The translations under genes were made by a program, and so were the position numbers. A DNA stretch of 64,000 bases, from positions 1-64,000 of the forward strand of contig NZ_FAOZ01000037.1 in the NCBI RefSeq assembly GCF_001536285.1, given 5' to 3'. The notes under the pieces were generated by a model. It was not told the origin of the DNA. It ran no database searches and was given only the letters and a program-made list of their open reading frames with translations. The DNA is from Parafrankia irregularis. Lineage in GTDB: Bacteria > Actinomycetota > Actinomycetes > Frankiales > Frankiaceae. This document shows positions 5,490 through 18,111 of this stretch, piece after piece. The stretch's first letter is position 1. The number at the start of each line of letters is the position of its first letter.

Positions 5490-5820
5490 CTTCGCCTCCA
5501 GTACCCGTCAGGTCATCGGCGTCCCCATCATCTCGGCCGGGGGCGGACCACTCACGGTCCCGCCCCCTCGATCGGGGCGTCCCCGGACCCGTTCCGACCG
5601 CCGCCACGCCGCCACGCCGCCGCGCCGTTGCGCCCACACCGGACGCCCCATCACCGCGACCGGATTCACAATTCCAGCCCGTGCCATGCCGGCTCGTCGT
5701 ACAGTCCTGGCAGAGTTTCATTCGGAGGGACACTCTCGGACGGATTCTGCGTGCCCATTTCGGGCACTGTCGGCCTTACCACCCGGCGAAGTGACCCCGT
5801 TGATCTCTTCGGGGGCGCGG
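5490..5820. other. Divergent intergenic region upstream of the EAD/VMAP cassette
   Basis: About 330 bp between the sir2 start and the first gene of the conflict cassette. No gene is evident. A short hairpin GCCCATTTCGGGC lies near 5753-5765. Promoters for both directions are expected here, but no convincing -35/-10 pair is visible. Confidence 0.4.
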
Positions 5821-6516
5821 ATGTGCACGAATCAAGATCGGGAACAGTCCGGCCCGAGTTCGCGCCGACTCATCGAACGGCGTCTGGTCGAGGTGCTCGA
5901 CGACGCCGCCGATCTGCATTCCGAACGCAGCCGCCTGCTGCTGGCCCGCCAGGTCGAGCGGGAACTGAACACCCGCGTCCGGGTGACCGACCTTCCCCTC
6001 TCGCGGCAGTGGTTCATCCGACTGCTGGAGATCTGCGCCGAGCGCCCCGGCGGAATGGCCGCACTCGCCGTGGCCGTCGCGCAGATGGAGCCCGGCGGAG
6101 TCACCGCGAAGGACGTCGCACAGCTCGCCGCACGCTGGGAGCAGCTCGGCACTCCACGCGGAAAGCGCGCCACCACAGCGGAAACCGCAGCCCCGAGCAT
6201 CAGGCCGGCATGGGAGAGCCCCACACCGGAAAGGATCACCGGCGCTCCGAACGTGCACGGACTCCACGTCACCGAGGTGCAGGCTCTGGCCGCCGCCTTT
6301 CCTGCCCGGTCCGCGTCGCAGAGCCTTCTCACCGCCGCCGGTCTCGCGCCGGAGCAGCAGCCGTCCTGGGCCGCACGCAGCGCCCTGGAGTTCTGGACCG
6401 AAGTGAATCAGCTCCTCACCGCCGGCGCGCTGGTGGACGGCCGCCGGAAAATTTTGGCCGCAGCAGCCGAGCGCCTACCCGAAAACCCGCATTTCGGGGG
6501 TTTCCAGCCACCTTAA
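5821..6516 (+). CDS. EAD2-EAD1 adaptor-like protein of a vWA-MoxR conflict system
   Basis: A 231-residue protein made of two effector-associated domains and no enzymatic domain. Residues ~16-92 are EAD2-like and align by eye with the N-terminus of the next gene product (shared pattern LHxxxSRxxLxR...DLPxxRxWFxxL). Residues ~148-225 look like EAD1: AAFPARSASQSLL, a central Trp (EFWTEVNQ) and the closing LPENPHF block. In the families described for NTP-dependent conflict systems, EADs make homotypic contacts that recruit effectors. A protein with one EAD of each kind would bridge an EAD2 system to any EAD1-carrying effector. The start was placed at ATG 5821; the open frame extends upstream only as low-complexity sequence. 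It lies 86 bp before the VMAP-like gene. Confidence 0.7.
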   Translation: MCTNQDREQSGPSSRRLIERRLVEVLDDAADLHSERSRLLLARQVERELNTRVRVTDLPLSRQWFIRLLEICAERPGGMAALAVAVAQMEPGGVTAKDVAQLAARWEQLGTPRGKRATTAETAAPSIRPAWESPTPERITGAPNVHGLHVTEVQALAAAFPARSASQSLLTAAGLAPEQQPSWAARSALEFWTEVNQLLTAGALVDGRRKILAAAAERLPENPHFGGFQPP

Positions 6517-6602
6517 TTGTGCTGATGTAGGACACTCTGAAGAAGGCTCAGCCGCGCCCGGCAGATCTACCTGCGCGGCCGGCGCGAGAGGTTCGGGGGG
6601 CC

Positions 6603-8234
6603 GTGACCGGTGCGGATGAACCTCGCAACCGTATGACTCGGGATGCTTTCCTGCACCGATACCGGTCCGCGGTCGAACGGCAGATCGTCGAAACCCTCGA
6701 CGACCACCCGGACCTGCACGGGGCCGGAAGCCGACCGGTGCTGCTGCGCAGATGCGCTGCCTGGTCGGGGACACGGCTGCCGATCAGTGACCTGCCGCAC
6801 GCCCGGCACTGGTTCGTCGACCTCGTGGGCTCCTTCAGCCGCGAAGGCCGCTTCGATTTCCTGGCCGAGGCCGTCAACGACCTGACCGGTGACGGCGAGC
6901 TGCGCGCGGCACTGCTGCGGCTGGACGACGCCTGGCAGGCAGCCGAGGTCGCCGCCGACGCTCCCGAGGGCCTGTGGGAGGAGCTCCAACGTGAGCTGAG
7001 CTCCGTGCCGGCGTCGCGGGTCGCGGACGTCCTGCACCAGGTCACCGAGGGCCGGCACAGCGGGCCGGAGTCCGACCACTGCAGGACCGCCTGGGATCTG
7101 TTCGTCTTCCTCTGCGACCGGTCGGCTCCGGGCGGCCGGCTCGGTCCCCGCATCGAGTTCCTCGAGCATCTGGTGCACGACATCGATCAACGGGTGGCAC
7201 GCCGGGTCGAGGCCTGGCACCAGTCCTGCGCCGACGACTGGAAGGCGACGGCAGCGCTGCGTGCGCTGCGGCTGGGCCGCGGCAGCCCTGGCAGCCCTGG
7301 CAGCGGTCGCAACGGTGACGACGGCCGAAGCCGACAGGCGATCCTGACACTGCAGCTGGAAAGGATCGCCACCAGCCCCGACCTCTATCTGCTGCGCACC
7401 TGGCAGCAGTGGGACGGCCAGGAGACCGTCTTCCACCCGGCGGCGCCACCGGTGCAGATCACCCGCCAGGCCCTGGAATGGCAGGTCGAGGCGGCGGTGC
7501 AGCGGTTCGAACGCTCCCTCGCGAGCGACGGTGTCGACGCGCGGATCGAGTTCATCCTGCCGCTGGACCTGCTGGGCCTGCGGGTTGAGTCCTTCCGCGT
7601 GGAGTGGGCTACCGGTGTGCCGCTCCCCCTCGCGCTGCGTTATCCGGTCGTGCTGCGCAGCCTCGACCGGATGCGCCAGCGGGAATGGCACCGGGCGTGG
7701 CGCCTGCGGTGGCGGATCCTCACCCGGGAACCGGCGCGGGCCGCCGTCGTGCGTGGTGAGCCCGCCGACGGCAGCCTGCGCCGGCTGGAGGCACGGCTGC
7801 TCTCTGACGAGGGAGTGGTCGCGGTGGTGTTCGACAGCGTGCCGGCAGGTCACGTGCCGGCGGGCCGCGTGCCCGTGGGCCATGCTCCGACGAGCCGCGT
7901 GCCCGTGGCCCGGCTGCCTGCGGCCCACCATCCCACGCCGCCGCACGAACAGCTCATCATAGCCCTACGCTGCGGAATTCCGGGAATTCTCTGGTCCTAT
8001 TCCCCGGATGCGGCGGACGCCGCCTCGGGGATCCATGAGTTCGCCGGCACCCAGAAAGTTGACACCCTTCCCGACCGGGTCACCTCCGCCCGCCGTGCGG
8101 CTTTCCTGGAAACCGCACCGGACAATAGCCTCGGAGGGTATCTTGCGCTGTTATGGGATGACCCCGACAGGCTGCCGGAACGGGGGTTGGCCGGTTCTCC
8201 CAGCCACCCCGAGGGGGGACACCACCGTGACTGA
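6603..8234 (+). CDS. VMAP-like vWA-MoxR-associated protein with N-terminal EAD2
   Basis: A 543-residue protein, likely the third partner of the vWA-MoxR-VMAP ternary system. Residues ~15-100 form an EAD2-like helical domain homologous to that of the preceding gene. A middle region follows with a Gly/Ser linker near 230-245. The C-terminal half carries the VMAP-C-like sequence: FILPLDLLGLRVESFRVEW, then ALRYPVVLRSLDRMR and LEARLLSDEGVVAVVF, ending in GYLALLWDDPDRLP. A 15-bp in-frame minisatellite near 7843-7923 inserts VPAGH/VPAGR-type repeats. The start is GTG 6603 behind a G-rich stretch; ATG 6633 is an alternative. It overlaps the MoxR gene by 8 bp. The role of VMAPs is presumed to be signal transduction or effector control and is not biochemically settled. 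Confidence 0.75.
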   Translation: MTGADEPRNRMTRDAFLHRYRSAVERQIVETLDDHPDLHGAGSRPVLLRRCAAWSGTRLPISDLPHARHWFVDLVGSFSREGRFDFLAEAVNDLTGDGELRAALLRLDDAWQAAEVAADAPEGLWEELQRELSSVPASRVADVLHQVTEGRHSGPESDHCRTAWDLFVFLCDRSAPGGRLGPRIEFLEHLVHDIDQRVARRVEAWHQSCADDWKATAALRALRLGRGSPGSPGSGRNGDDGRSRQAILTLQLERIATSPDLYLLRTWQQWDGQETVFHPAAPPVQITRQALEWQVEAAVQRFERSLASDGVDARIEFILPLDLLGLRVESFRVEWATGVPLPLALRYPVVLRSLDRMRQREWHRAWRLRWRILTREPARAAVVRGEPADGSLRRLEARLLSDEGVVAVVFDSVPAGHVPAGRVPVGHAPTSRVPVARLPAAHHPTPPHEQLIIALRCGIPGILWSYSPDAADAASGIHEFAGTQKVDTLPDRVTSARRAAFLETAPDNSLGGYLALLWDDPDRLPERGLAGSPSHPEGGHHRD

Positions 8235-9459
8235 CGATGCCCCGGGCCGCGATCGGCCGGGTTCCGCCGATGGTGGGACACGCGCCGGCGATCCTGCACC
8301 CACCAGCCTTCCCCGACCCGGTGGGCTGGCTGACACGGACGCCGCGCCGGGCACGCGACCTGCGCAGACACCGTCAGCGCCGGGCTGGTGGCTGTTCGAC
8401 GGTGGAATCCGGTCCGAGGTCCGGGAATGGCCTCCGCCACCGCCGTGGCGGATGTTCTCCGGGGGTCCCGACCAACCGGAGCCCCCGGAGGAGCAACGCG
8501 AAACCACCCGGCGACTCGGCCTGGGCGGTGTCCGCCTGCTCGACCACTCCGCGCTCGGGATGGTGAACGCCGCTCTCGTGCTGCGCCGGCCGTTGCTGGT
8601 GACAGGAAGCCCGGGCAGCGGGAAGTCGAGCCTCGCGTACCAGATCGCGGCGAGCCTGGGGCTGGGCCGGGTGCTGCGCTGGCCCATCACCAGCCGCAGC
8701 ACCCTGGCACAGGGCCTCTACGACTACGACGCGATCGGCCGCGCCCAGTACGAGGTGTTCGGCCGGGCCCAGGCGGCGCCGTCGGGCCGACCCACCGGAA
8801 CGCGGGCTCGGTCGCCGATACGCGCCAAGGATGTCGCCGACGCCGAACGTCCCGCGTTTGCCGCCATCCCGCCGGTCGGGGACTTCGTGCATCTCGGGCC
8901 TCTCGGCACAGCGCTGCTCCCGCATCGCCGGCCGCGGGTGCTCCTTGTCGACGAGTTCGACAAAAGCGACATCGATCTTCCCAACGACCTGCTGAACGTC
9001 TTCGAGGACGGGCAGTTCTCCATCCCCGAGCTGGTCCGGGCTCGAGACGCCACACCCGAGGTGCGGGTCCACACCGCGGACCCCGGTGGCACGGCGACAG
9101 TCCACGCCGGCATCGTCGAGTGCCACGAGTTCCCGGTCGTCGTCATCACGAGCAACGGGGAGCGCGAGTTCCCGCCGGCGCTGCTGCGCCGGTGCACCCG
9201 CCTGGACATCCCGCCGCCCGACACCGAACGGCTGGCGGCGCTGATCGCCGCGCACTTCCCACACGGCATCGCCGGGCGTGCCGAGCTGGTCGAACAGTTC
9301 ACCCGGCACCGGACCCTCGCCGGGCCGCTCGCCGCGGACCAGCTCCTCAACGCGGCCTACCTGCTGACGCTCGGCGCCGACACGGACGGCGCCGAGGCCT
9401 GGCCAGATCTGCGCGAACAGCTCTGGCACCGCCTCGCCGCCGACACGGACCCGGGATGA
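8227..9459 (+). CDS. MoxR-type AAA+ ATPase
   Basis: A 410-residue AAA+ ATPase. The N-terminal ~80 residues are disordered and Pro-rich. The core has Walker A GSPGSGKSS (~127-135), Walker B VLLVDEFDKS (~238-247), sensor-1 VVITSNGERE (~307-316) and an arginine finger ALLRRCTRLD just after. All catalytic residues are present, so it should be active. MoxR ATPases typically remodel a partner with a vWA domain; here that partner is the next gene. GTG 8227 is the likely start, with a GAGGGGGG ribosome site upstream and an 8-bp overlap with the VMAP-like gene. The stop overlaps the next start as ATGA. The tight overlaps point to fixed stoichiometry of a ternary complex. Confidence 0.92.
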   Translation: MTDDAPGRDRPGSADGGTRAGDPAPTSLPRPGGLADTDAAPGTRPAQTPSAPGWWLFDGGIRSEVREWPPPPPWRMFSGGPDQPEPPEEQRETTRRLGLGGVRLLDHSALGMVNAALVLRRPLLVTGSPGSGKSSLAYQIAASLGLGRVLRWPITSRSTLAQGLYDYDAIGRAQYEVFGRAQAAPSGRPTGTRARSPIRAKDVADAERPAFAAIPPVGDFVHLGPLGTALLPHRRPRVLLVDEFDKSDIDLPNDLLNVFEDGQFSIPELVRARDATPEVRVHTADPGGTATVHAGIVECHEFPVVVITSNGEREFPPALLRRCTRLDIPPPDTERLAALIAAHFPHGIAGRAELVEQFTRHRTLAGPLAADQLLNAAYLLTLGADTDGAEAWPDLREQLWHRLAADTDPG

Positions 9460-12400
9460 CCACCGAGGGATCCGACCCCGCCCCATCCGCACGGCTGCCG
9501 CCCCCGGCGGCTTCCGTGGAGGCCTGGCCGATCCCCGGCTCGTCCGCCGTCTCCGGCGCTGGAGCCTCCGCCGCTTCCGCGGTCGACCGGGCCGCGACCA
9601 CGGTGGGAATCACTGCCCGCGAGCACGCCGAGGCGCTTTGGCTCTACGGCCTCATGGCCAGCAGCGGTTCGCAGGCGCAGGCGCAGGGCTCCACCGCTGG
9701 CGATCCATCACCGGCGCCGTCACCGTCGGGCGCCGGCCCCAGGGACGGCGCCCTCGGCGAGGGGCGCCCGACCGGACCGGTTTCCCTCCCGACACCCGAC
9801 CCGGACACCCGCGGCGACAATGCCGGAAACACTGACGCTGAAGAACAATTTCCGCCATTTCCGCGGGCTGACCGAGACATTGCGCTCGCAACTCCCGTAT
9901 CGACGAACACCCGACGCCTTCAGGGTGCCCCGGAGGATGACGCGGAGTCCTTATGGACACCCCTCCCCTGGATGCGGCCCCGTAGTGGTTTCGCGTCGCT
10001 GGAGAGGCAATTATCGGGTGCCCGTCGCAGCCTGCGGCCGCTACGGCAGACTGTCCCCTCAAAGGTCCAAATGGTGCTGGACGAGGAGGCCACCGCGGAA
10101 CGTCTTCTGCGCGGGCCGGCGCCTGTTCCGGTCCGCAGACCAGCCCCGGAGCGCCGCTGGGAGCTTGTCCTGCTGGTGGACGACAGTCCGTCCATGCAGG
10201 TGGCCTGGCTCGACCTGGTGCCGCTGTTGCGCGGCTACCTCGTCCGCGAGGGCGTCTTCCGCGACATCCGTGTCTGTTTCGTCGACGGAGAGGCCGCGGA
10301 GGCGGGCCAGGTCACGCTCCGGCCCGAGTCCCGGGCCGGCGGCCTGCACCGGTCCCCACGGGAAGTCATCGATCCGAGCGGCCGGAGGATCATCTGGGTG
10401 CTGACCGACGGCGTCGGGCGAGGCTGGCGCAACGGGGCGCTGCACAGGCAGCTCTGGTGGTGGAGCCGCCGCCTTCCGGTGGCGGTGATGAACCCGCTGC
10501 CGGCCCACCTGTGGCATCTGACCGGCCTCGCCCCGCACCAGGTGAGCATCTTCGCCGCCGCCGGGCCGGGCTCGGTGGCGGTGCGCTGGCGGTTCCAGGA
10601 TGCCTGGGCCAGTCTGACCGGTGACGCGGTATCGGATCAGGCCGCCGTGGCGCCGATTCCGATGCTCGGCGTGGACGGAGGCAGCATCGCCAGCTGGGCC
10701 CGCTTCCAGTCGGCGGAGCACGAGCGCCGGTTGGACGCGCCGGCTGTGCTGGTAGGACCCGACGGCACAGGTACGGGCGCAGGGGAAGGCACGGGGCAGG
10801 ACACGGGAGAAGGCACAGCCGCCGGCCGGAACGCGGGGGCCGGAACAGGTGGGCACGGCGCCCGCGTCATGGATGGCGTCGGGGTGACGCTGACGAAACG
10901 GACGAAGCCGACACCGCTGGAGATCGTGCGCCGCGCCCGCGCGACGCTGAGCCCCGCGGCCTTCGACCTCGCGGTGCGGCTCGCGGCTGTCCCGTTGACC
11001 CGGGACGCGATCCACATGGTCTGTGACCAGGTCTCACAGGCCGGCCGGGCCGAGCTCGGCGAGATCCTCGTCCACCGCCTGCTGCGTCCCGTCACGGCTG
11101 CCCCCGCCCTGCCCACGGCCGCCGACGAGGTCGCCTTCGAGTTCGGCGAGGGGGTTCCCGCCGAGCTGCTCGCCTGCGGCAGACAGTCCCAGACGATCCG
11201 GACGTGGCGTTCCGCCGGACGTCTGCTGAGTCCGGCGGTGGCGGCGCTCCGGCACGTCGACGTCGTTCTGGACGACCCGGTGGGCGCCCCGCTGCCCGTG
11301 ATCACTCCGCACAGCGCGCCCTTCATCCGGGTCGAGGAGGTCGTCCTGAGTGCCCTGTCAGGGCCCTACCGATCCCGCGCACTGATGCTTCGCGACGCCC
11401 TTCGGACAGCGGAGCGTGAGGTCCAGACCGACGGCAGCCCGGTGCCCCTGTCGGCCGGCGCCGCGCAGGCCGGCGTGTCTGGCACGCGCAGGCCTGGCCG
11501 TCGACATGAGGTAGAGCCTGTGACCCACAGTAACGACTCGACATCACGCGCGCCGGCCGCACGGACGCCCATAGATGACCAGCCCACCGCGGCCGAGGTT
11601 GCTTCCGCTGACCCTGGAGGAGGGAATGTGGCGCAGTACGACGCGCCGACAATCGTGACCAGCCCGACCGCGGCAGGCATCGCGCCGGAAATACGTCCCC
11701 CGGCGCGGCGGCCCGGGGGGCAGCCCGTGGTCTGGGGCAACATGCCCCAGCGGAACCCGAACTTCACCGGGCGCGCGGAGCTGCTCGACGCCCTGCACGA
11801 GCGGCTGCAGACCGGGACCACGGCCGTGCTGCCCGAGGCGCTCCACGGCATGGGTGGAGTCGGCAAGTCGCAGCTCGCCATCGAGTACGTGTACCGGCAG
11901 CTGGCCGACTACGACGTCGTCTGGTGGATCCCGTCCGAGCGGACCACCCAGATCAACCAGGCGCTCGTGGAGCTGGCCCAACGTCTCGGCCTGGGCGTCG
12001 GTCAGGAGGCCAATGCCGCGGTGCCCGCCGTCATCGAGGCGCTGCGTGTCGGCAAGCCCTTCAGCAACTGGCTGTTGATCTTCGACAACGCCGACGACCC
12101 TCGGGCGGTGCGCGACTTCTTCCCGGCGAGCGGCACCGGCCGCATTCTGATCACGTCACGGAACGCGCAGTGGGCGGGGGCCGCCCGTGCGCTGGAGGTC
12201 GACGTGTTCCAGCGCGGCGAGAGCGTCGAGCTGCTCCGCCGACGAACGACGTCGATCGGCGAGGTGGACGCCGACCGGGTCGCCGCCGCGCTCGGCGACC
12301 TGCCGCTGGCCATCGAGCAGGCGGCGACCTGGCTCGCGGAGACGGGCATGCCGGCCGACGAGTACCTGCGGCTTTTCGAGGACAAACGGCAGGAGCTGCT

Positions 12401-14204
12401 GGGCACCGCGCCACCGCTGGACTACCGGATGCCCGTCCGGGCGGCCTGGAACGTCTCGCTGGACCGCCTCGCGACGTCGAACCCCGCCGCCCTGCGGCTG
12501 CTGCAGGTCTGTGCCTATTTCGCGCCCGACCCGATCTCCCGGCAGGTCTTCCGCCGCGGCCGACACATCTCGATCGTTCCCGAGCTCGACGCGGCGCTGC
12601 GCGACTCGTTCCGGCTGAACGAGGCCATCCGCGAGATCAACCAGTACGCCCTGGCCCGTATCGACCACCGCACCAACTCCCTGCAGATGCACCGCCTGGT
12701 CCAGGCCGTCCTCATCGGCCGGATGAGCCCCGACGAGCAGGAGACGATGCGCCACGGGGCGCACCGCCTGCTCGCGGCCAGCGACCCGGACGAGCCGATG
12801 AACCCCGAATGGTGGAGCGTCTACGCGGAGCTGTACCCGCATGTGATCGCGGCGGGCGCGGTGGAGGGCCACGATCCCCTCATCCGGGACCTGCTCGTCA
12901 ACGAGGTGCGCTACCTGTGGAAGTGGGGCGACCACGAGGTCGGCGTGGACCTGGCGCGCCAGGCCTACGAGAGCTGGCGGGTCACCCTCGGCGAGGAGCA
13001 CCCCCACACGCTCTCCGTCGGTGGCTGGTACGGCTGGCTGCTCCAGGTGGTCGGCAACTACTCCGAGGCCGCGCCCATCAACACCCGGATGCTGGAGCTG
13101 TGCGAACGGGTACACGGCCCGCGGCATCCCGAGACCCTGGCCGCGTTCGCGAACGTCACGATGGATCGCAAGGTCAGCGGCGACTTCGCGGGCGCGGTCG
13201 AGCTGAGCGAGACGGCACGCGAGCGCGCGGTCAACGTCTACGGTGCCGACCAGCCACAGTCCCTGAACGCCGCGCACAACCTGGCGGCCGCGCTTCGGCT
13301 GGTGGGTGACTTCCGGCGCGCGCAGGAGATCGACGACGACACCTGGCGCCGACGTTGCGCCCTGCTCGGCGAGGACAACGTCACCAGCCTGGAGTCCCAC
13401 AGCAGCCAGAACCTCAACCTCCGCGAGCTGGGTGACTACCTGGGCGCGCGGGCCCGGCAGGAGGAGCTGGTCGCGCGGCTCCGTGCGCTGTTGGGCAACG
13501 AGTACCACCCCGACCTGTTGCGGGCACTGCGCAATCTGGCCATCGACCAGCGCAAGGCCGGCGACCACGACGTGGCGCTGCAGACCTCACGCCTTGCCTG
13601 GGAGCGGCTCCTGTCCCGGTACGGGCCGGACCATCCCGACACGCTCGCCGCGATCCTCTGCTACTCGATGGACCTGCGCCACAACGGTGATCTCGACGAG
13701 GCCCGCCGCCTGTGCGAGGACGCCCACCGGCGTTACCGGAACAGCTTCGGCGACACCCACCCGCACACTCTGGGCGCCGAGACCAATCTGGCCGTCGTCT
13801 ACCGGCTGGCCGGCGACGCGGAGACCGCGTTCGAGATCGACCTCCGGTCCTGCGCCGCGCTCGTGGCGACGATCGGCCCCGACCACCCGCTGGCCCTGAT
13901 CTCGGCGACGAACCTGGCGAGCGACCACTACGCGCTCGGGCGGCCGGGTGAGGCCCGTGGGCTCGACGAGGACACGCTGGAGCGGTCACGCGTCCATCTC
14001 GGTGCCGACCACCCGTCCACCCTCGCCGTGCTGTCCAACCTGGCCATGGACCTGCGGGCGCTGGGCGAGCGGGAGCGGGCGGAGGAACTGCACGCCCAGG
14101 TCGTCTCGCAGCTGGACCACGCGCTCGGCGTCAATCATCTGGCGACCCAGTCGGCTATGAGCTGGGTGCGCTCCGACTGCGACGTCGATCCGATGCCACT
14201 GTGA
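9456..14204 (+). CDS. SAV_2336/vWA-like - NB-ARC - TPR protein (FxsT-like)
   Basis: A giant 1582-residue signalling protein. Residues ~170-690 correspond to the SAV_2336 N-terminal region: a vWA-like domain with MIDAS motif DDSPS (242-246), then a helical region. A disordered linker (~690-765) leads to an NB-ARC/STAND ATPase: P-loop GMGGVGKS (~798-805), Walker B LLIFDNADDP (~874-883), GRILITSR, and GDLPLAIEQ (~946). From ~1165 to the end come about nine 42-residue TPR-like units with DHPxTLxxxxNLA signatures (Kinesin-light-chain/TPR_12 type). This layout matches proteins annotated as the TPR component of FxSxx-COOH systems. It presumably senses a trigger through the TPRs, oligomerises via NB-ARC, and is remodelled by the MoxR ATPase through the vWA module. 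It starts within the MoxR stop (ATGA). Confidence 0.82.
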   Translation: MTTEGSDPAPSARLPPPAASVEAWPIPGSSAVSGAGASAASAVDRAATTVGITAREHAEALWLYGLMASSGSQAQAQGSTAGDPSPAPSPSGAGPRDGALGEGRPTGPVSLPTPDPDTRGDNAGNTDAEEQFPPFPRADRDIALATPVSTNTRRLQGAPEDDAESLWTPLPWMRPRSGFASLERQLSGARRSLRPLRQTVPSKVQMVLDEEATAERLLRGPAPVPVRRPAPERRWELVLLVDDSPSMQVAWLDLVPLLRGYLVREGVFRDIRVCFVDGEAAEAGQVTLRPESRAGGLHRSPREVIDPSGRRIIWVLTDGVGRGWRNGALHRQLWWWSRRLPVAVMNPLPAHLWHLTGLAPHQVSIFAAAGPGSVAVRWRFQDAWASLTGDAVSDQAAVAPIPMLGVDGGSIASWARFQSAEHERRLDAPAVLVGPDGTGTGAGEGTGQDTGEGTAAGRNAGAGTGGHGARVMDGVGVTLTKRTKPTPLEIVRRARATLSPAAFDLAVRLAAVPLTRDAIHMVCDQVSQAGRAELGEILVHRLLRPVTAAPALPTAADEVAFEFGEGVPAELLACGRQSQTIRTWRSAGRLLSPAVAALRHVDVVLDDPVGAPLPVITPHSAPFIRVEEVVLSALSGPYRSRALMLRDALRTAEREVQTDGSPVPLSAGAAQAGVSGTRRPGRRHEVEPVTHSNDSTSRAPAARTPIDDQPTAAEVASADPGGGNVAQYDAPTIVTSPTAAGIAPEIRPPARRPGGQPVVWGNMPQRNPNFTGRAELLDALHERLQTGTTAVLPEALHGMGGVGKSQLAIEYVYRQLADYDVVWWIPSERTTQINQALVELAQRLGLGVGQEANAAVPAVIEALRVGKPFSNWLLIFDNADDPRAVRDFFPASGTGRILITSRNAQWAGAARALEVDVFQRGESVELLRRRTTSIGEVDADRVAAALGDLPLAIEQAATWLAETGMPADEYLRLFEDKRQELLGTAPPLDYRMPVRAAWNVSLDRLATSNPAALRLLQVCAYFAPDPISRQVFRRGRHISIVPELDAALRDSFRLNEAIREINQYALARIDHRTNSLQMHRLVQAVLIGRMSPDEQETMRHGAHRLLAASDPDEPMNPEWWSVYAELYPHVIAAGAVEGHDPLIRDLLVNEVRYLWKWGDHEVGVDLARQAYESWRVTLGEEHPHTLSVGGWYGWLLQVVGNYSEAAPINTRMLELCERVHGPRHPETLAAFANVTMDRKVSGDFAGAVELSETARERAVNVYGADQPQSLNAAHNLAAALRLVGDFRRAQEIDDDTWRRRCALLGEDNVTSLESHSSQNLNLRELGDYLGARARQEELVARLRALLGNEYHPDLLRALRNLAIDQRKAGDHDVALQTSRLAWERLLSRYGPDHPDTLAAILCYSMDLRHNGDLDEARRLCEDAHRRYRNSFGDTHPHTLGAETNLAVVYRLAGDAETAFEIDLRSCAALVATIGPDHPLALISATNLASDHYALGRPGEARGLDEDTLERSRVHLGADHPSTLAVLSNLAMDLRALGERERAEELHAQVVSQLDHALGVNHLATQSAMSWVRSDCDVDPMPL
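11616..11630 (+). promoter_or_regulatory. Strong internal Shine-Dalgarno with in-frame GTG inside the FxsT-like gene
   Basis: The sequence GGAGGAGGGAATGTG places a near-ideal Shine-Dalgarno 4-6 nt before an in-frame GTG (11628) exactly in the disordered linker before the NB-ARC domain. It could direct separate translation of an NB-ARC-TPR product of about 858 residues, or be a scar of fusion between two once separate genes. Confidence 0.45.
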
Positions 14205-14304: not shown

Positions 14305-16017
14305 TCAGACCGGGAGGCCGCTGAGATCGCCGACGCCGTCATCCCAGGTCGTCGGCCCGGGCCGGGCCTCCAGGATGCGGCAGGCGGCGAGACCGGCGAC
14401 GGCCCGGTCATCCGCCGGATCCGCCCGGGCCGCCCGCTCATAGCCGCCGCGGGCACCCGCGAGATCACCTGCCACCAGCAGCCAGTCGGCGGGCAGCAGT
14501 GCGTCGCCGGGGCGGGTGGCCCCGGCGATCGCCTGTGCCGCCCGGGTGCGGAACTCGCGCGGCTCGAGCAGCTGGAGCCGGCACAGGTCGGTCAGCCCCT
14601 GCAGCGGCACCGGCCGGACGACCTCCGCGGTGTGGCGCCGCAGGAGCCAGCGCGTCCGGTGCACGTGACGTGCCAGACCGGCGAACCGCTCGGCCTCCGA
14701 GGCCACCGGTTCACCCAGCCAGCTCTCCAGCCGCAGCACGAGGCCGGTGACGAAACGGTGACCGGCCTGGGTCAGATCCGGGTGCACCCGCACCTGGCGG
14801 AGCGCCTCGTCGACCTGCCCGCGCGCCAGCGCGAACTCGAAGTCGGCGTGCAGGCGCGCCGCCCCGTCCAGCGCCCTCCGCCAGGTGCGCCAGAACGCGG
14901 TGACCTCAAGAAAGGCGTATACCCCGTGCAGCATTCCCTGGAGCGGACGCGGATCGTCGCGCCAGGGTGCGTAGCCGACCGGTCCCGGCCGGCGGACCAG
15001 CAGCTCCGTCAGGTTGAACAAAGCACCGAGGCGGGCGTGCGCCAGCTCGTGCAACAACGTCTCCGCCAGCCACGGCCCGTGATTCGTCTCGGCGAGGCTG
15101 ATCGAGCCGACCGCGTCACCATCCGACGCGCTGTTGATCCGGAAGCGCTGCCTGTTCGGTATCGGGGCCAACATCAGCGGAGCCTGCGACAGCAGCACGG
15201 CCTGCCGCGGAAAACGAGTCACCAGAATCTCCCACGCGGCGGCGAGGGTTTTCTCCCAGTGCCGTACCGAAGAGGTTTCCAGCCGCAGCGGACGTGCCGG
15301 GGTGGCGATTTGGCGGAACGGGTCCGTGTCGTCAAGGGCCACGGTCAGGACACGGTCCCCGTATTCGGCGCGCAGCACCGGCAGTGGCCGCCATCCGGCG
15401 CCGGCCACCGTGACGTCCAGGCAGATCTCCCCACCGGGATCGGCGCGCAGCCGACCGGCCTCGTGGCGCAGGGCCACGACAGCCCAGATCCCGTGGCCGG
15501 GCACGTTACCCGAGCCCAATGTCGGCAGCACCAGAAGGCGATGACGCAGGGGCACCCGGAGCACGAAGTCAAGCCCGGCGCGCACGGCGGCGGACGCGGC
15601 GACGGTGTGCAGATAGCCGAGATCCACCCACAGCGGCGTGTCGGAATAGGCCACACCGCGCAGGCGACGCAGCACGTGGGCGACCCAGCGCCCGACGGTC
15701 GGGTGCTCGAGCACCGCCCGGGCCTCGGCGGGGGCCCGGGCCTCCGCGGCCTCCAGCAGCTCCCAGGCGACGTCCAGCGACGGTAACGGCCCGTAGACGC
15801 CGGCCCGGGCCCGTGTCTGGTCCAGGAGCGCCCGCAGCAGCAGCCGCCGCCGGCTCCGCTCGGCTCGCCACAGGACCCGGCTGGGCGCACCGTCATCCGT
15901 CCCCGCGGCCAGCGCGTCGAACGCCGCGGCCGACAGCTCCTGCTGTGCGTGCGCCCCACCGGCCATGGGCCCCCGCGGCCCGTCGACGCCCGTTGCTGGG
16001 CGGTAGGTCACACCCAC
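14305..16017 (-). CDS. HExxH-motif protein, probable alpha-ketoglutarate-dependent RiPP peptide beta-hydroxylase
   Basis: A 570-residue protein with the motif HELAH (323-327) inside LLHELAHARL. Its overall look, including SSVRHWEKTLAAAWEIL, the segment PLMLAPIPNRQRFRINSAS, LAETNHGPWLAETLLHELAH and a helical TPR-like C-terminal part, matches the HEXXH domain family that is found fused to, or beside, radical SAM FxsB enzymes. That family was first described as an inactivated metallohydrolase and later as Fe(II)/alpha-ketoglutarate-dependent peptide beta-hydroxylases. Here it stands alone with its precursor peptide. GTG 16017 or GTG 16011 can start it; the latter overlaps the peptide stop as GTGA, indicating translational coupling. 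It converges on the FxsT-like gene with a 100-bp gap. Activity and metal use are inferred. Confidence 0.72.
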   Translation of the reverse strand: MGVTYRPATGVDGPRGPMAGGAHAQQELSAAAFDALAAGTDDGAPSRVLWRAERSRRRLLLRALLDQTRARAGVYGPLPSLDVAWELLEAAEARAPAEARAVLEHPTVGRWVAHVLRRLRGVAYSDTPLWVDLGYLHTVAASAAVRAGLDFVLRVPLRHRLLVLPTLGSGNVPGHGIWAVVALRHEAGRLRADPGGEICLDVTVAGAGWRPLPVLRAEYGDRVLTVALDDTDPFRQIATPARPLRLETSSVRHWEKTLAAAWEILVTRFPRQAVLLSQAPLMLAPIPNRQRFRINSASDGDAVGSISLAETNHGPWLAETLLHELAHARLGALFNLTELLVRRPGPVGYAPWRDDPRPLQGMLHGVYAFLEVTAFWRTWRRALDGAARLHADFEFALARGQVDEALRQVRVHPDLTQAGHRFVTGLVLRLESWLGEPVASEAERFAGLARHVHRTRWLLRRHTAEVVRPVPLQGLTDLCRLQLLEPREFRTRAAQAIAGATRPGDALLPADWLLVAGDLAGARGGYERAARADPADDRAVAGLAACRILEARPGPTTWDDGVGDLSGLPV

Positions 16018-16184
16018 CCGGCCCGAATGCCCCCGATCAGCCGACTGTCCGGTTCGTCGATGACCGCCAGGATCCGGCGCAGTCGGTCATCCAACTCGAC
16101 GTCGTGGCGATGACGCAGGTCACGAAGGCTGAGTTCGCTCAGGTCCAGGAATGAGCTCTGGATGTTGACCGGGCCTTGGGTCAT
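16008..16184 (-). CDS. FxsA-like RiPP precursor peptide (58 aa), atypical C-terminus
   Basis: A short gene coding 58 residues. An AAGGAG ribosome site (16195-16200) precedes it, 10 nt from ATG 16184 or 7 nt from GTG 16187; the upstream in-frame ATG 16208 would place the ribosome site inside the gene and is rejected. The N-terminal half, IQSSFLDLSELSLRDLR, has the conserved leader pattern of FxsA peptides (S-L/F-LDLSxLSLxxLR), and the middle LRRILAVIDEPDS resembles their second helix. The C-terminus GGIRAGWV lacks the FxSxx tail that names the family and that radical SAM FxsB crosslinks. It overlaps the HExxH gene start, so it is the likely substrate. Modification site is unknown; the His/Asp-rich RHRHDVELDD is one candidate. 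Confidence 0.68.
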   Translation of the reverse strand: MTQGPVNIQSSFLDLSELSLRDLRHRHDVELDDRLRRILAVIDEPDSRLIGGIRAGWV

Positions 16185-16545
16185 CACCGTCGGTCTCCTT
16201 TCGGGCATGGCTGACCACCGGTGCGAGGCGACGTGCCGGTATCACGACGGCACGCCGCGGGAACGTAGATGGCTTCGCTGCCAGAAGTGTCGCACGGCGT
16301 CGCCGCACACGCGGCCGGTTCTGGCCCCGCCTGGAAAGGACGAACCATCGCCGAGGAATGGGGCCATGGATCCCGCTGGCCGTATCCAGAGGAGTCCGTT
16401 GCCCCGCACCGATCGGCCAACGATGACAATCGCCCAGGAGCCCATTACGTACGGATTTCGAATCATCCGGCGATTTTGCTCGCCCACAACCCGAGGCCGC
16501 GTTCCAGGTGCCTCCCACAGGCCGCACCACGCGGACGGGCCGCCG
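16185..16545. other. Leader/promoter region of the peptide-hydroxylase unit
   Basis: About 360 bp between the acyl-CoA synthetase stop and the precursor peptide start. Only the ribosome site of the peptide (16195-16200) is clear. A promoter for the leftward peptide operon must lie here, but no consensus was recognised. No additional gene is supported. Confidence 0.4.
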
Positions 16546-18111
16546 CTACACGCTGGACGACTCGGTAGCCCAGTAGGTGTCCCGAAGCGCCTTCTTGTAG
16601 AGCTTGCCGTTGTCGAGACGGGGCAGCTCAGGCACGAAGTCGATCGAGCGCGGCCATTTGAACGGGGCCAGCCTGTCCCGGCAGTAGTCCAGCAGGCGGG
16701 CAGCCAGCGCGTCCCCCGCGTCGGCCATGGTCGCCGGTTGGACGACGGCCTTGACCTGCTCACCGAGCTCCGGGTGCGGGACTCCGAACACGGCGACGTC
16801 CGCCACCTCGTCGTGCATGACCAGGACGTCCTCGATCTCCCGCGGGTAGATGTTGACACCGCCGGCGATGATCGTGAAGTCGCGCCGGTCGCTCAGGTAG
16901 AGATAGCCGTCCTCATCGACATGACCGACATCGCCCAGGGTGCGCCAGCCCGGATGGGCGGGATGGCTCACGGCCCTGGTCCGCCCGGGGTCCTTGTGGT
17001 AGCTGAAGCCGGCACCCGGGCTCTCGAAGTAGATCGTCCCGGTCTCGCCGACGGGCAGCTCGGTGCCGTCCTCGGCGCAGATGTGCAGCACACCGCCGCC
17101 CTGGGCGCGCCCGACCGAGCCGGGGTGGGCGAGCCATTCCTCGCTGGAGATGCCGGTGTTGCCGAAGTTCTCCGAGCCGGAGTAGTACTCGTAGACGATC
17201 GGCCCCCACCATTCGATCATCTGGCGCTTCACGTCGACCGGGCATGGCGCCGCGGCGTGCAGGGCGATGCGCATGCTCGACAGGTCGTAACGGTTCCGGA
17301 TCTCCGGGGCTAGCTTGAGCATCCGGACGAACATCGTCGGCACCCACTGCGCGGCGAGAACCCGGTACCGCTCGATCGCGCTCAGTGCCTCCTGCGCGTC
17401 GAACTTCGGGAGCACCACGACGGTTCCCCCAATGCTGTGTAACACGGCCGACACCCTCAGTGGTGCCGCGTGGTAAAGCGGCGCGGGCGACAGGTAGACG
17501 GAGTCGGCGTCGAGGCCGTACATCCGCACCGTCCCGTTCAGCAGCTGGACGTCGCCGGCGGAGGCGGGAGTGTCCGGCAGCGGGAAACGGATGCCCTTCG
17601 GGCGGCCGGTGGTTCCCGAGCTGTAGAGCATGAACGAGCCGCGGATCTCGTCCTCGCGGGGCCCGCTGTCGTAGCCGGCGGTGGCGACGTCGAGATCCTC
17701 GTGGTGCTCGGACGACCCGTCGAGCATGAGCCGGCGCAGGACCCCTGGCGTCTCCGCCACGATCCCCTCCGCGACACCGGCCAGCTTCCGCGTGGTGACC
17801 AGTGCCTTCGCACCGCTGTCGTTGACCAGGTAGGCGACTTCGGGTGCGGTGAGGTGGGAGTTGATCGGAGTGATGTAGAGGCCACAGTTGAGACCCGCCC
17901 ACACCAGCTCGAAGTAGCGCAGATGATTCTCGGCGAGAACGGCCAGGCAGTCACCCGGGCGCAGACCCGAGTGGACGAGTAAGCGGGACAACCGCGCGGA
18001 ACCCTCGACCAGCTCACGGTAGGTCTGGACGCGGTCCGTACCGTCGGGGCCACCGGTCAGGATCACCGCGGGCTTGTCGGGGGTCAGTGTCGCGAAGTCG
18101 GGCGGGTACAT
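16546..18111 (-). CDS. AMP-forming acyl-CoA synthetase (fatty-acid/aryl-CoA ligase type)
   Basis: An adenylate-forming enzyme of 521 residues. The phosphate loop MLYSSGTTGRPKG is at 161-173, the A5-like block YEYYSGSENFG near 310, LGDVGHVDEDGYLYLSDR (A7/A8) near 415, and the catalytic lysine in the A10-like end RLDNGKLYKKALR. It would activate a carboxylic acid to an acyl-adenylate and then a CoA thioester; chain type is not predictable. ATG 18111 was chosen because GGAGGATCC lies immediately upstream and it starts at the family N-terminus; the open frame extends further upstream without similarity. It stands alone on the minus strand. Confidence 0.9.
   Translation of the reverse strand: MYPPDFATLTPDKPAVILTGGPDGTDRVQTYRELVEGSARLSRLLVHSGLRPGDCLAVLAENHLRYFELVWAGLNCGLYITPINSHLTAPEVAYLVNDSGAKALVTTRKLAGVAEGIVAETPGVLRRLMLDGSSEHHEDLDVATAGYDSGPREDEIRGSFMLYSSGTTGRPKGIRFPLPDTPASAGDVQLLNGTVRMYGLDADSVYLSPAPLYHAAPLRVSAVLHSIGGTVVVLPKFDAQEALSAIERYRVLAAQWVPTMFVRMLKLAPEIRNRYDLSSMRIALHAAAPCPVDVKRQMIEWWGPIVYEYYSGSENFGNTGISSEEWLAHPGSVGRAQGGGVLHICAEDGTELPVGETGTIYFESPGAGFSYHKDPGRTRAVSHPAHPGWRTLGDVGHVDEDGYLYLSDRRDFTIIAGGVNIYPREIEDVLVMHDEVADVAVFGVPHPELGEQVKAVVQPATMADAGDALAARLLDYCRDRLAPFKWPRSIDFVPELPRLDNGKLYKKALRDTYWATESSSV

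What the first reader, a model, noticed from the sequence alone, without database searches (positions are those of the whole stretch)
16008..16184. FxsA-like precursor peptide lacking the FxSxx C-terminus
The leader-like IQSSFLDLSELSLRDLR matches the FxsA pattern, but the C-terminus is GGIRAGWV. The crosslinked FxSxx residues are missing, consistent with loss of the radical SAM step. The conserved His/Asp cluster RHRHDVELDD is a new candidate modification site. The gene is too short for many annotation pipelines.
Basis: partly seen in the sequence, partly recalled or inferred. Interest (0 to 1): 0.82.

Follow-up and report, generated by a model that had tools for sequence, protein, structure and literature searches.

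The report
FxsA-related peptide with hydroxylase partner
A real 58-amino-acid gene encodes the likely substrate of the iron enzyme made from the next gene; it belongs to a large, already noted but biochemically uncharacterised branch of the FxSxx peptide family that works without the radical-SAM enzyme, and this member has an unusual tail even for that branch.

Summary
The 58-codon frame at 16184..16008 (-) has a strong Shine-Dalgarno sequence, ends in a 4-nt GTGA overlap with a stand-alone alphaKG-HExxH peptide beta-hydroxylase gene, and lacks FxSxx. It is conserved and under protein-level selection (pooled dN/dS about 0.35 over 33 homologue pairs). Its leader is detectably related to FxsA. 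Of 106 homologues directly upstream of HExxH genes in loci without a radical-SAM gene, none ends in FxSxx.

The interpretation needs correcting. (1) The class is not new: Kaur et al. 2020 described non-FxSxx 'RxD' and 'acidic' peptides coupled to VMAP/MoxR/vWA-AP-ATPase-TPR systems, the layout found here. (2) The stand-alone enzymes form one old clade, so this is no local loss of the radical-SAM step. (3) RHRHDVELDD is not a conserved site (His in 6/106 at each position); it lies in a predicted leader helix. The better candidate core is the tail, where R54 aligns with the R of RxD but the Asp is gone (GGIRAGWV).

Most likely mechanism (inferred): the helical leader binds the HExxH enzyme, which hydroxylates the tail; the peptide serves the conflict system as signal or effector. 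By analogy with PosC/PflC (ARMD), RxD-type members may be oxidatively cleaved and amidated.

The parts
16008..16184 (-). Precursor peptide gene, 58 aa, ATG start: leader I8-R24, predicted helix 8-42, variable tail 45-58 (PDSRLIGGIRAGWV)
16194..16200 (-). Shine-Dalgarno sequence AAAGGAG about 10 nt before the ATG
   Evidence: sequence
14305..16011 (-). Stand-alone aKG-HExxH-type peptide beta-hydroxylase; probable GTG start at 16011 overlapping the precursor stop by 4 nt (GTGA); HELAH and PWRDDPRP kept
   Evidence: TIGR04267 151 bits; invariant residues; PDB 22nu_A E 2.9e-34 and ChlH 8s5f_A E 1.3e-7
9456..14204 (+). vWA (SAV_2336-type N-terminus) - NB-ARC AP-ATPase - TPR fusion, the 'FxSxx-COOH system TPR protein' (FxsT)
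   Evidence: NF041121 264 bits, NF040586 879 bits, PF00931, TPRs
8227..9459 (+). MoxR-type AAA+ ATPase of the ternary system
   Evidence: PF07728/PF00004; overlapping starts
6603..8234 (+). VMAP (EAD2 - VMAP-M0 - VMAP-C) protein of the ternary system
   Evidence: PF19956, PF19916, PF20028

Best explanation
The frame is the precursor peptide of a minimal RiPP cassette: precursor plus one alphaKG/Fe(II)-dependent HExxH hydroxylase, coupled to a VMAP / MoxR / vWA-AP-ATPase-TPR conflict system. SHOWN by sequence: a conserved coding frame, an FxsA-related leader, a coupled HExxH gene with intact family-invariant residues, the ternary-system neighbours, no radical-SAM gene and no FxSxx. [quoted passage not shown] the flexible tail (residues 45-58) reaches the iron site and gains one or more hydroxyls, most likely on the Asp/Arg/Gly-rich stretch DEPDSRLIGGIRAG rather than on RHRHD. 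The modified peptide, possibly after leader removal, then acts with the ternary system as a ligand, signal or effector when the STAND ATPase fires.
For: Coding and conserved. Leader related to FxsA: motif-only FxsA profile finds it at E 5e-4; TIGR04268 scores an RxD-type homologue at 25.5 bits, just under its cut-off of 28; independent sub-profiles recognise each other (partly circular). Partner enzyme. Association: 106 stand-alone loci, 0 FxSxx ends; of 16 peptides directly before a radical-SAM frame 8 end in FxSxx exactly and several more carry it internally (Fisher p 1e-8, not corrected for relatedness). FxsT homologue in 99 of 101 stand-alone loci, VMAP in 70, vWA and FxsT in one frame in 79. 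Leader is the most constrained part (dN/dS 0.20, tail 0.39). Known HExxH enzymes hydroxylate Asp, His, Gln, Phe and Pro (PMC12636437, PMC13060819).
Against: No substrate, product or activity has been tested for any stand-alone member of this clade. [quoted passage not shown] The tail of the window member is conserved only among three Parafrankia-type genomes, so the modified residue cannot be read from conservation. The structure prediction of the enzyme failed (mean pLDDT 39, single sequence).
Confidence: 0.72

Rival explanations
1. The HExxH protein is a zincin-like peptidase that cuts the precursor to release a C-terminal peptide, as Kaur et al. 2020 proposed before the hydroxylase activity was found.
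For: Zincin-like fold and HExxH; PflC can hydrolyse truncated peptides when the leader is absent, and PosC/PflC remove a C-terminal tetrapeptide oxidatively.
Against: The family (TIGR04267) is now characterised as alphaKG-dependent hydroxylases, with a solved relative ChlH, and the curated name is beta-hydroxylase.
Confidence: 0.12
2. Oxidative C-terminal trimming: like PosC/PflC on ARMD, stand-alone enzymes oxidise the residue before R-x-D, giving alpha-hydroxylation, cleavage and a C-terminal amide where it is Gly or Ala, and beta-hydroxylation without cleavage where it is bulky. In the window the residue before R54 is Ile (Val in EUN1f), so it would be hydroxylated but not cut.
For: 58 of 113 stand-alone peptides end in exactly R-x-D/E against 0.7% of background frames; Gly is the residue before R in 26 of 58. 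PosA A91G and A91V behave in these two ways.
Against: PflA/PosA leaders are of a different type and their enzymes lie in another cluster of the family; in PosA the R, M and D are individually dispensable; the window has no D.
Confidence: 0.2
3. The peptide is modified in trans by the radical-SAM FxsB encoded elsewhere in the same genome.
For: The genome holds a canonical FxsA/FxsB locus (L095).
Against: No FxSxx acceptor; F12 lies in the leader and W57 is the second last residue; 106 of 106 homologues lack the motif.
Confidence: 0.02
4. Spurious ORF or a regulatory leader peptide for the HExxH gene.
For: Short, overlaps the enzyme gene.
Against: Conserved leader over Frankiaceae, Streptomyces-like and other actinobacterial groups, dN/dS 0.35, also present where it does not overlap the enzyme start.
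Confidence: 0.03

Closest known systems
RxD-type (and acidic-type) peptide-processing systems of VMAP-ternary systems, Kaur et al. 2020 eLife (PMC7159879)
   Same: Small fast-evolving peptide plus zincin-like HExxH protein, no radical SAM, AP-ATPase-TPR fused directly to the vWA protein, with VMAP and MoxR genes
   Different: The window peptide and its two nearest relatives lack the terminal RxD (RAGWV, RNPLL) and are not acidic; the paper read the enzyme as a peptidase
FxsA / FxSxx-COOH (TIGR04268) with FxsB radical SAM
   Same: Related N-terminal leader and helix; FxsT and an HExxH domain in the cluster
   Different: No FxSxx, no radical-SAM gene, below the model's detection, enzyme in a separate clade
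ChlH / ChlBH (8s5f; Morishita et al. 2024, as cited in PMC12636437)
   Same: HExxH hydroxylase family, PWRxDxRP motif
   Different: ChlH acts on a cyclophane-bearing substrate made by its radical-SAM domain
PflA/PflC and PosA/PosC of Pseudomonas (PMC12636437)
   Same: Stand-alone alphaKG-HExxH enzyme with a substrate ending in R-x-D (ARMD)
   Different: Unrelated leader, extra MNIO-nitroreductase, another cluster of the enzyme family

Membership tests
FxSxx-COOH peptide (TIGR04268) | C-terminal FxSxx | tested here: not met
   Ends GGIRAGWV
FxSxx-COOH peptide (TIGR04268) | Score above the curated cut-off of 28 bits | tested here: not met
   No match at E<=10
FxSxx-COOH peptide (TIGR04268) | FxsA-type leader | tested here: met
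   Motif-only FxsA profile E 5e-4; weaker (E 0.09) when the C-terminal columns are left out
FxSxx-COOH peptide (TIGR04268) | Radical-SAM/SPASM FxsB in the cluster | tested here: not met
   No motif or homology match in the window
RxD-type VMAP-ternary peptide system (Kaur 2020) | VMAP, MoxR and vWA genes beside it | tested here: met
RxD-type VMAP-ternary peptide system (Kaur 2020) | AP-ATPase-TPR fused to the vWA protein | tested here: met
   One 1582-aa frame, NF041121 + NF040586
RxD-type VMAP-ternary peptide system (Kaur 2020) | Small peptide gene beside a zincin-like HExxH gene, without radical SAM | tested here: met
RxD-type VMAP-ternary peptide system (Kaur 2020) | C-terminal RxD | tested here: not met
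   R54 aligns with the R (75/106) but the D position is G
[quoted passage not shown]
aKG-HExxH peptide beta-hydroxylase (TIGR04267), partner gene | Score above cut-off, HExxH and invariant residues | tested here: met
   151 bits against 40; H323 E324 H327, W352 R353 D355 R357
aKG-HExxH peptide beta-hydroxylase (TIGR04267), partner gene | alphaKG-dependent peptide hydroxylation | not testable with these tools
   Needs biochemistry

The most novel reading that the evidence does not exclude
The stand-alone clade is a family of peptide-trimming and amidating oxygenases: R-x-D-COOH is the recognition tail, the residue before it decides the outcome (Gly/Ala: alpha-hydroxylation, cleavage and a C-terminal amide; Ile/Val/Gln/Ser: beta-hydroxylation without cleavage), and the Parafrankia lineage of the window has drifted to a non-cleavable I/V-R-A-G tail. 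That would make an amidated or hydroxylated peptide the signal of a bacterial STAND-ATPase conflict system.
Probability: 0.17. Interest if true: 0.7.

Novelty: new variant of a known kind. Interest (0 to 1): 0.42.

Why it matters
No curated model in NCBIfam or Pfam covers these peptides, although at least 113 were found here in about 950 genomes, so annotation of this branch is largely missing. The set links a bioinformatic prediction of 2020 (RxD peptides in conflict systems) with enzymology of 2024-2025 (HExxH enzymes are hydroxylases and can cut before ARMD), which makes the product of these cassettes directly testable. The window itself is a useful outlier because it keeps the leader and the Arg but not the terminal Asp.

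Tried and rejected
RHRHDVELDD as a conserved hydroxylation site: rejected. Terminal RxD as a by-product of the overlap with the enzyme start codon or its ribosome-binding site: not supported, since it is also present where the enzyme starts 20-35 nt downstream. Frameshift hiding a normal FxSxx end: rejected. Recent loss of the radical-SAM gene: not supported. dN/dS of the window against EUN1f alone is uninformative (7 differences), so pooled pairs were used; the enzyme dN/dS printed is out of frame and is not used. AlphaFold model of the enzyme unusable, so no fold search was made. The genome-contig scan found only Parafrankia sp. EUN1f. PADLOC gave only weak AAA matches. The paper of Morishita et al. 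2024 is not held in the library.

Full report
CHECK. The frame at 16184..16008 (-) translates to MTQGPVNIQSSFLDLSELSLRDLRHRHDVELDDRLRRILAVIDEPDSRLIGGIRAGWV. The ATG is preceded by AAAGGAG and the stop codon shares GTGA with a start codon of the next gene. That gene encodes a stand-alone aKG-HExxH-type peptide beta-hydroxylase (TIGR04267, 151 bits, cut-off 40); HELAH and PWRDDPRP, both invariant or nearly so in 147 relatives, are intact. Its best PDB sequence matches are 22nu_A (E 2.9e-34) and ChlH 8s5f_A (E 1.3e-7). Convergent to this pair lie VMAP, MoxR-AAA and a vWA-NB-ARC-TPR protein that is the FxSxx-system TPR protein NF040586. No radical-SAM gene was found by motif or homology. The nearest named relative is Parafrankia sp. 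EUN1f.

RELATIVES. HExxH homologues were collected from 985 whole-genome searches counted by the tool and 141 flanking regions were read. Iterative profile searches found related short frames directly upstream. In loci without a radical-SAM motif 106 such peptides precede an HExxH frame and none ends in FxSxx; of 16 directly before a radical-SAM frame 8 end exactly in FxSxx and most others carry GFxS internally. One 'stand-alone' locus (L153) has a radical-SAM homologue elsewhere in the fetched region. One FxSxx peptide (L082) has no radical-SAM gene in the fetched stretch, but its HExxH frame is interrupted and its sister L088 has one; it is not directly upstream of the HExxH frame and so is outside the 106. 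The counts are not corrected for relatedness.

HOMOLOGY TO FxsA. The groups were found with profiles seeded by the window peptide, so their mutual recognition is partly circular. Two less circular tests: a profile made from 17 peptides chosen only by a terminal [AG]FxSxx in radical-SAM loci finds the window peptide at E 5e-4 among 33,721 frames, by far the best in the window; with the C-terminal columns removed the match weakens to E 0.09. NCBI's own FxSxx model gives 25.5 bits (cut-off 28) to an RxD-type homologue and nothing to the window. I conclude that the family as a whole is related to FxsA and that the window member is a divergent member.

SELECTION AND ANATOMY. Over 33 disjoint pairs pooled dN/dS is 0.35: leader (8-24) 0.20, following helix 0.38, tail 0.39. 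Conserved positions are I8, E9 (Q here), S10, L12 (F here), D14 (99/106), L15, L20, L23, R24, R37 and R54 (75/106). H25 and H27 occur in 6 of 106 each; D28 is common in the Frankiaceae clade (16/18) but in 32 of 106 overall. A single-sequence model of the peptide gives one helix over 8-42 (mean pLDDT 75). In the 18-member Frankiaceae clade most tails show [D/N]-x-R-[F/L] followed by Gly; in the window this is DSRLIGG. This is a better candidate region for modification than RHRHDVELDD, but conservation does not single out a residue.

TAIL TYPES. Of 113 peptides without radical SAM 58 end exactly in R-x-D/E, against 176 of 24,625 background short frames; the motif is present also where the enzyme start does not overlap. 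This matches the 'RxD type' that Kaur et al. 2020 described, together with the rule that the AP-ATPase-TPR is then fused to the vWA protein (PMC7159879), which is the architecture here. The window and its two closest relatives lack the D (RAGWV, RAGWV, RNPLL).

TREE. In a FastTree of 147 enzymes 110 stand-alone enzymes lie on one side of a branch (support 99) and the radical-SAM-linked ones on the other, with four radical-SAM-free exceptions among the latter. The stand-alone state is therefore old in this lineage. The tree is unrooted, so 'loss' of the radical-SAM step is neither shown nor excluded at the deeper branch; it is not a peculiarity of this gene.

MECHANISM. Shown: genes, conservation, association. 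From published work: HExxH enzymes beta-hydroxylate Asp, His, Gln, Phe and Pro, and PosC/PflC also cut oxidatively before a C-terminal ARMD, with Gly or Ala favouring cleavage and Val, Gln or Ser giving other oxidations without cleavage (PMC12636437, PMC13060819). Inferred: the leader docks the peptide and the tail is hydroxylated; in RxD members, where Gly precedes R in 26 of 58, alpha-hydroxylation and amidation are possible; in the window, where Ile (Val in EUN1f) precedes R54, hydroxylation without cleavage would be expected. The role as signal or effector of the conflict system is Kaur et al.'s proposal and is untested.

VERDICT. Observation confirmed; interpretation partly supported; the class is known from bioinformatics, uncharacterised in the literature I could search, and the window is a tail variant of it.

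Noticed in passing
L095 (G000:C17:30000-47000), about 179-436 and 6315-9612: The same genome has a canonical FxSxx locus with radical SAM and two FxsA-like peptides (ends AGFASSA and AGFTSSA).
   Followed up: partly
L103 (G000:C6:316000-332000), 5703-6122 and 6347-8434: A third HExxH locus of this genome: peptide ends AGYSQYPGKSEGDW, no radical SAM seen, yet the enzyme groups with the radical-SAM-linked clade; with L087 and L096 a candidate for genuine secondary loss.
   Followed up: partly
L163, L164, L166-L170, L174, L175, L179: A sub-group of mostly Streptomyces-type peptides carries a Cys near the C-terminus (for example NSSASQETCVS, KPLVASKDSGGC) instead of RxD.
   Followed up: no
L126, L152, L156, L157: Loci with two separate precursor/HExxH cassettes, some divergent, with different tails (GGYNPQRDE against DFNPSAERYD).
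   Followed up: no
L159, 6880-7059 and 7088-7309 (-): Two tandem precursor copies ending in GGGAERID before one HExxH gene.
   Followed up: no
L082 (G289:C24:71000-88000): FxSxx peptide whose locus shows an interrupted HExxH frame and no radical-SAM gene in the fetched stretch; possible decay.
   Followed up: partly
window 8227-8234 and 9456-9459: VMAP, MoxR and vWA genes have overlapping stop/start codons, suggesting a translationally coupled operon.
   Followed up: partly
window 16546-18111 (-): FadD4-like acyl-CoA ligase upstream of the cassette, probably unrelated.
   Followed up: no
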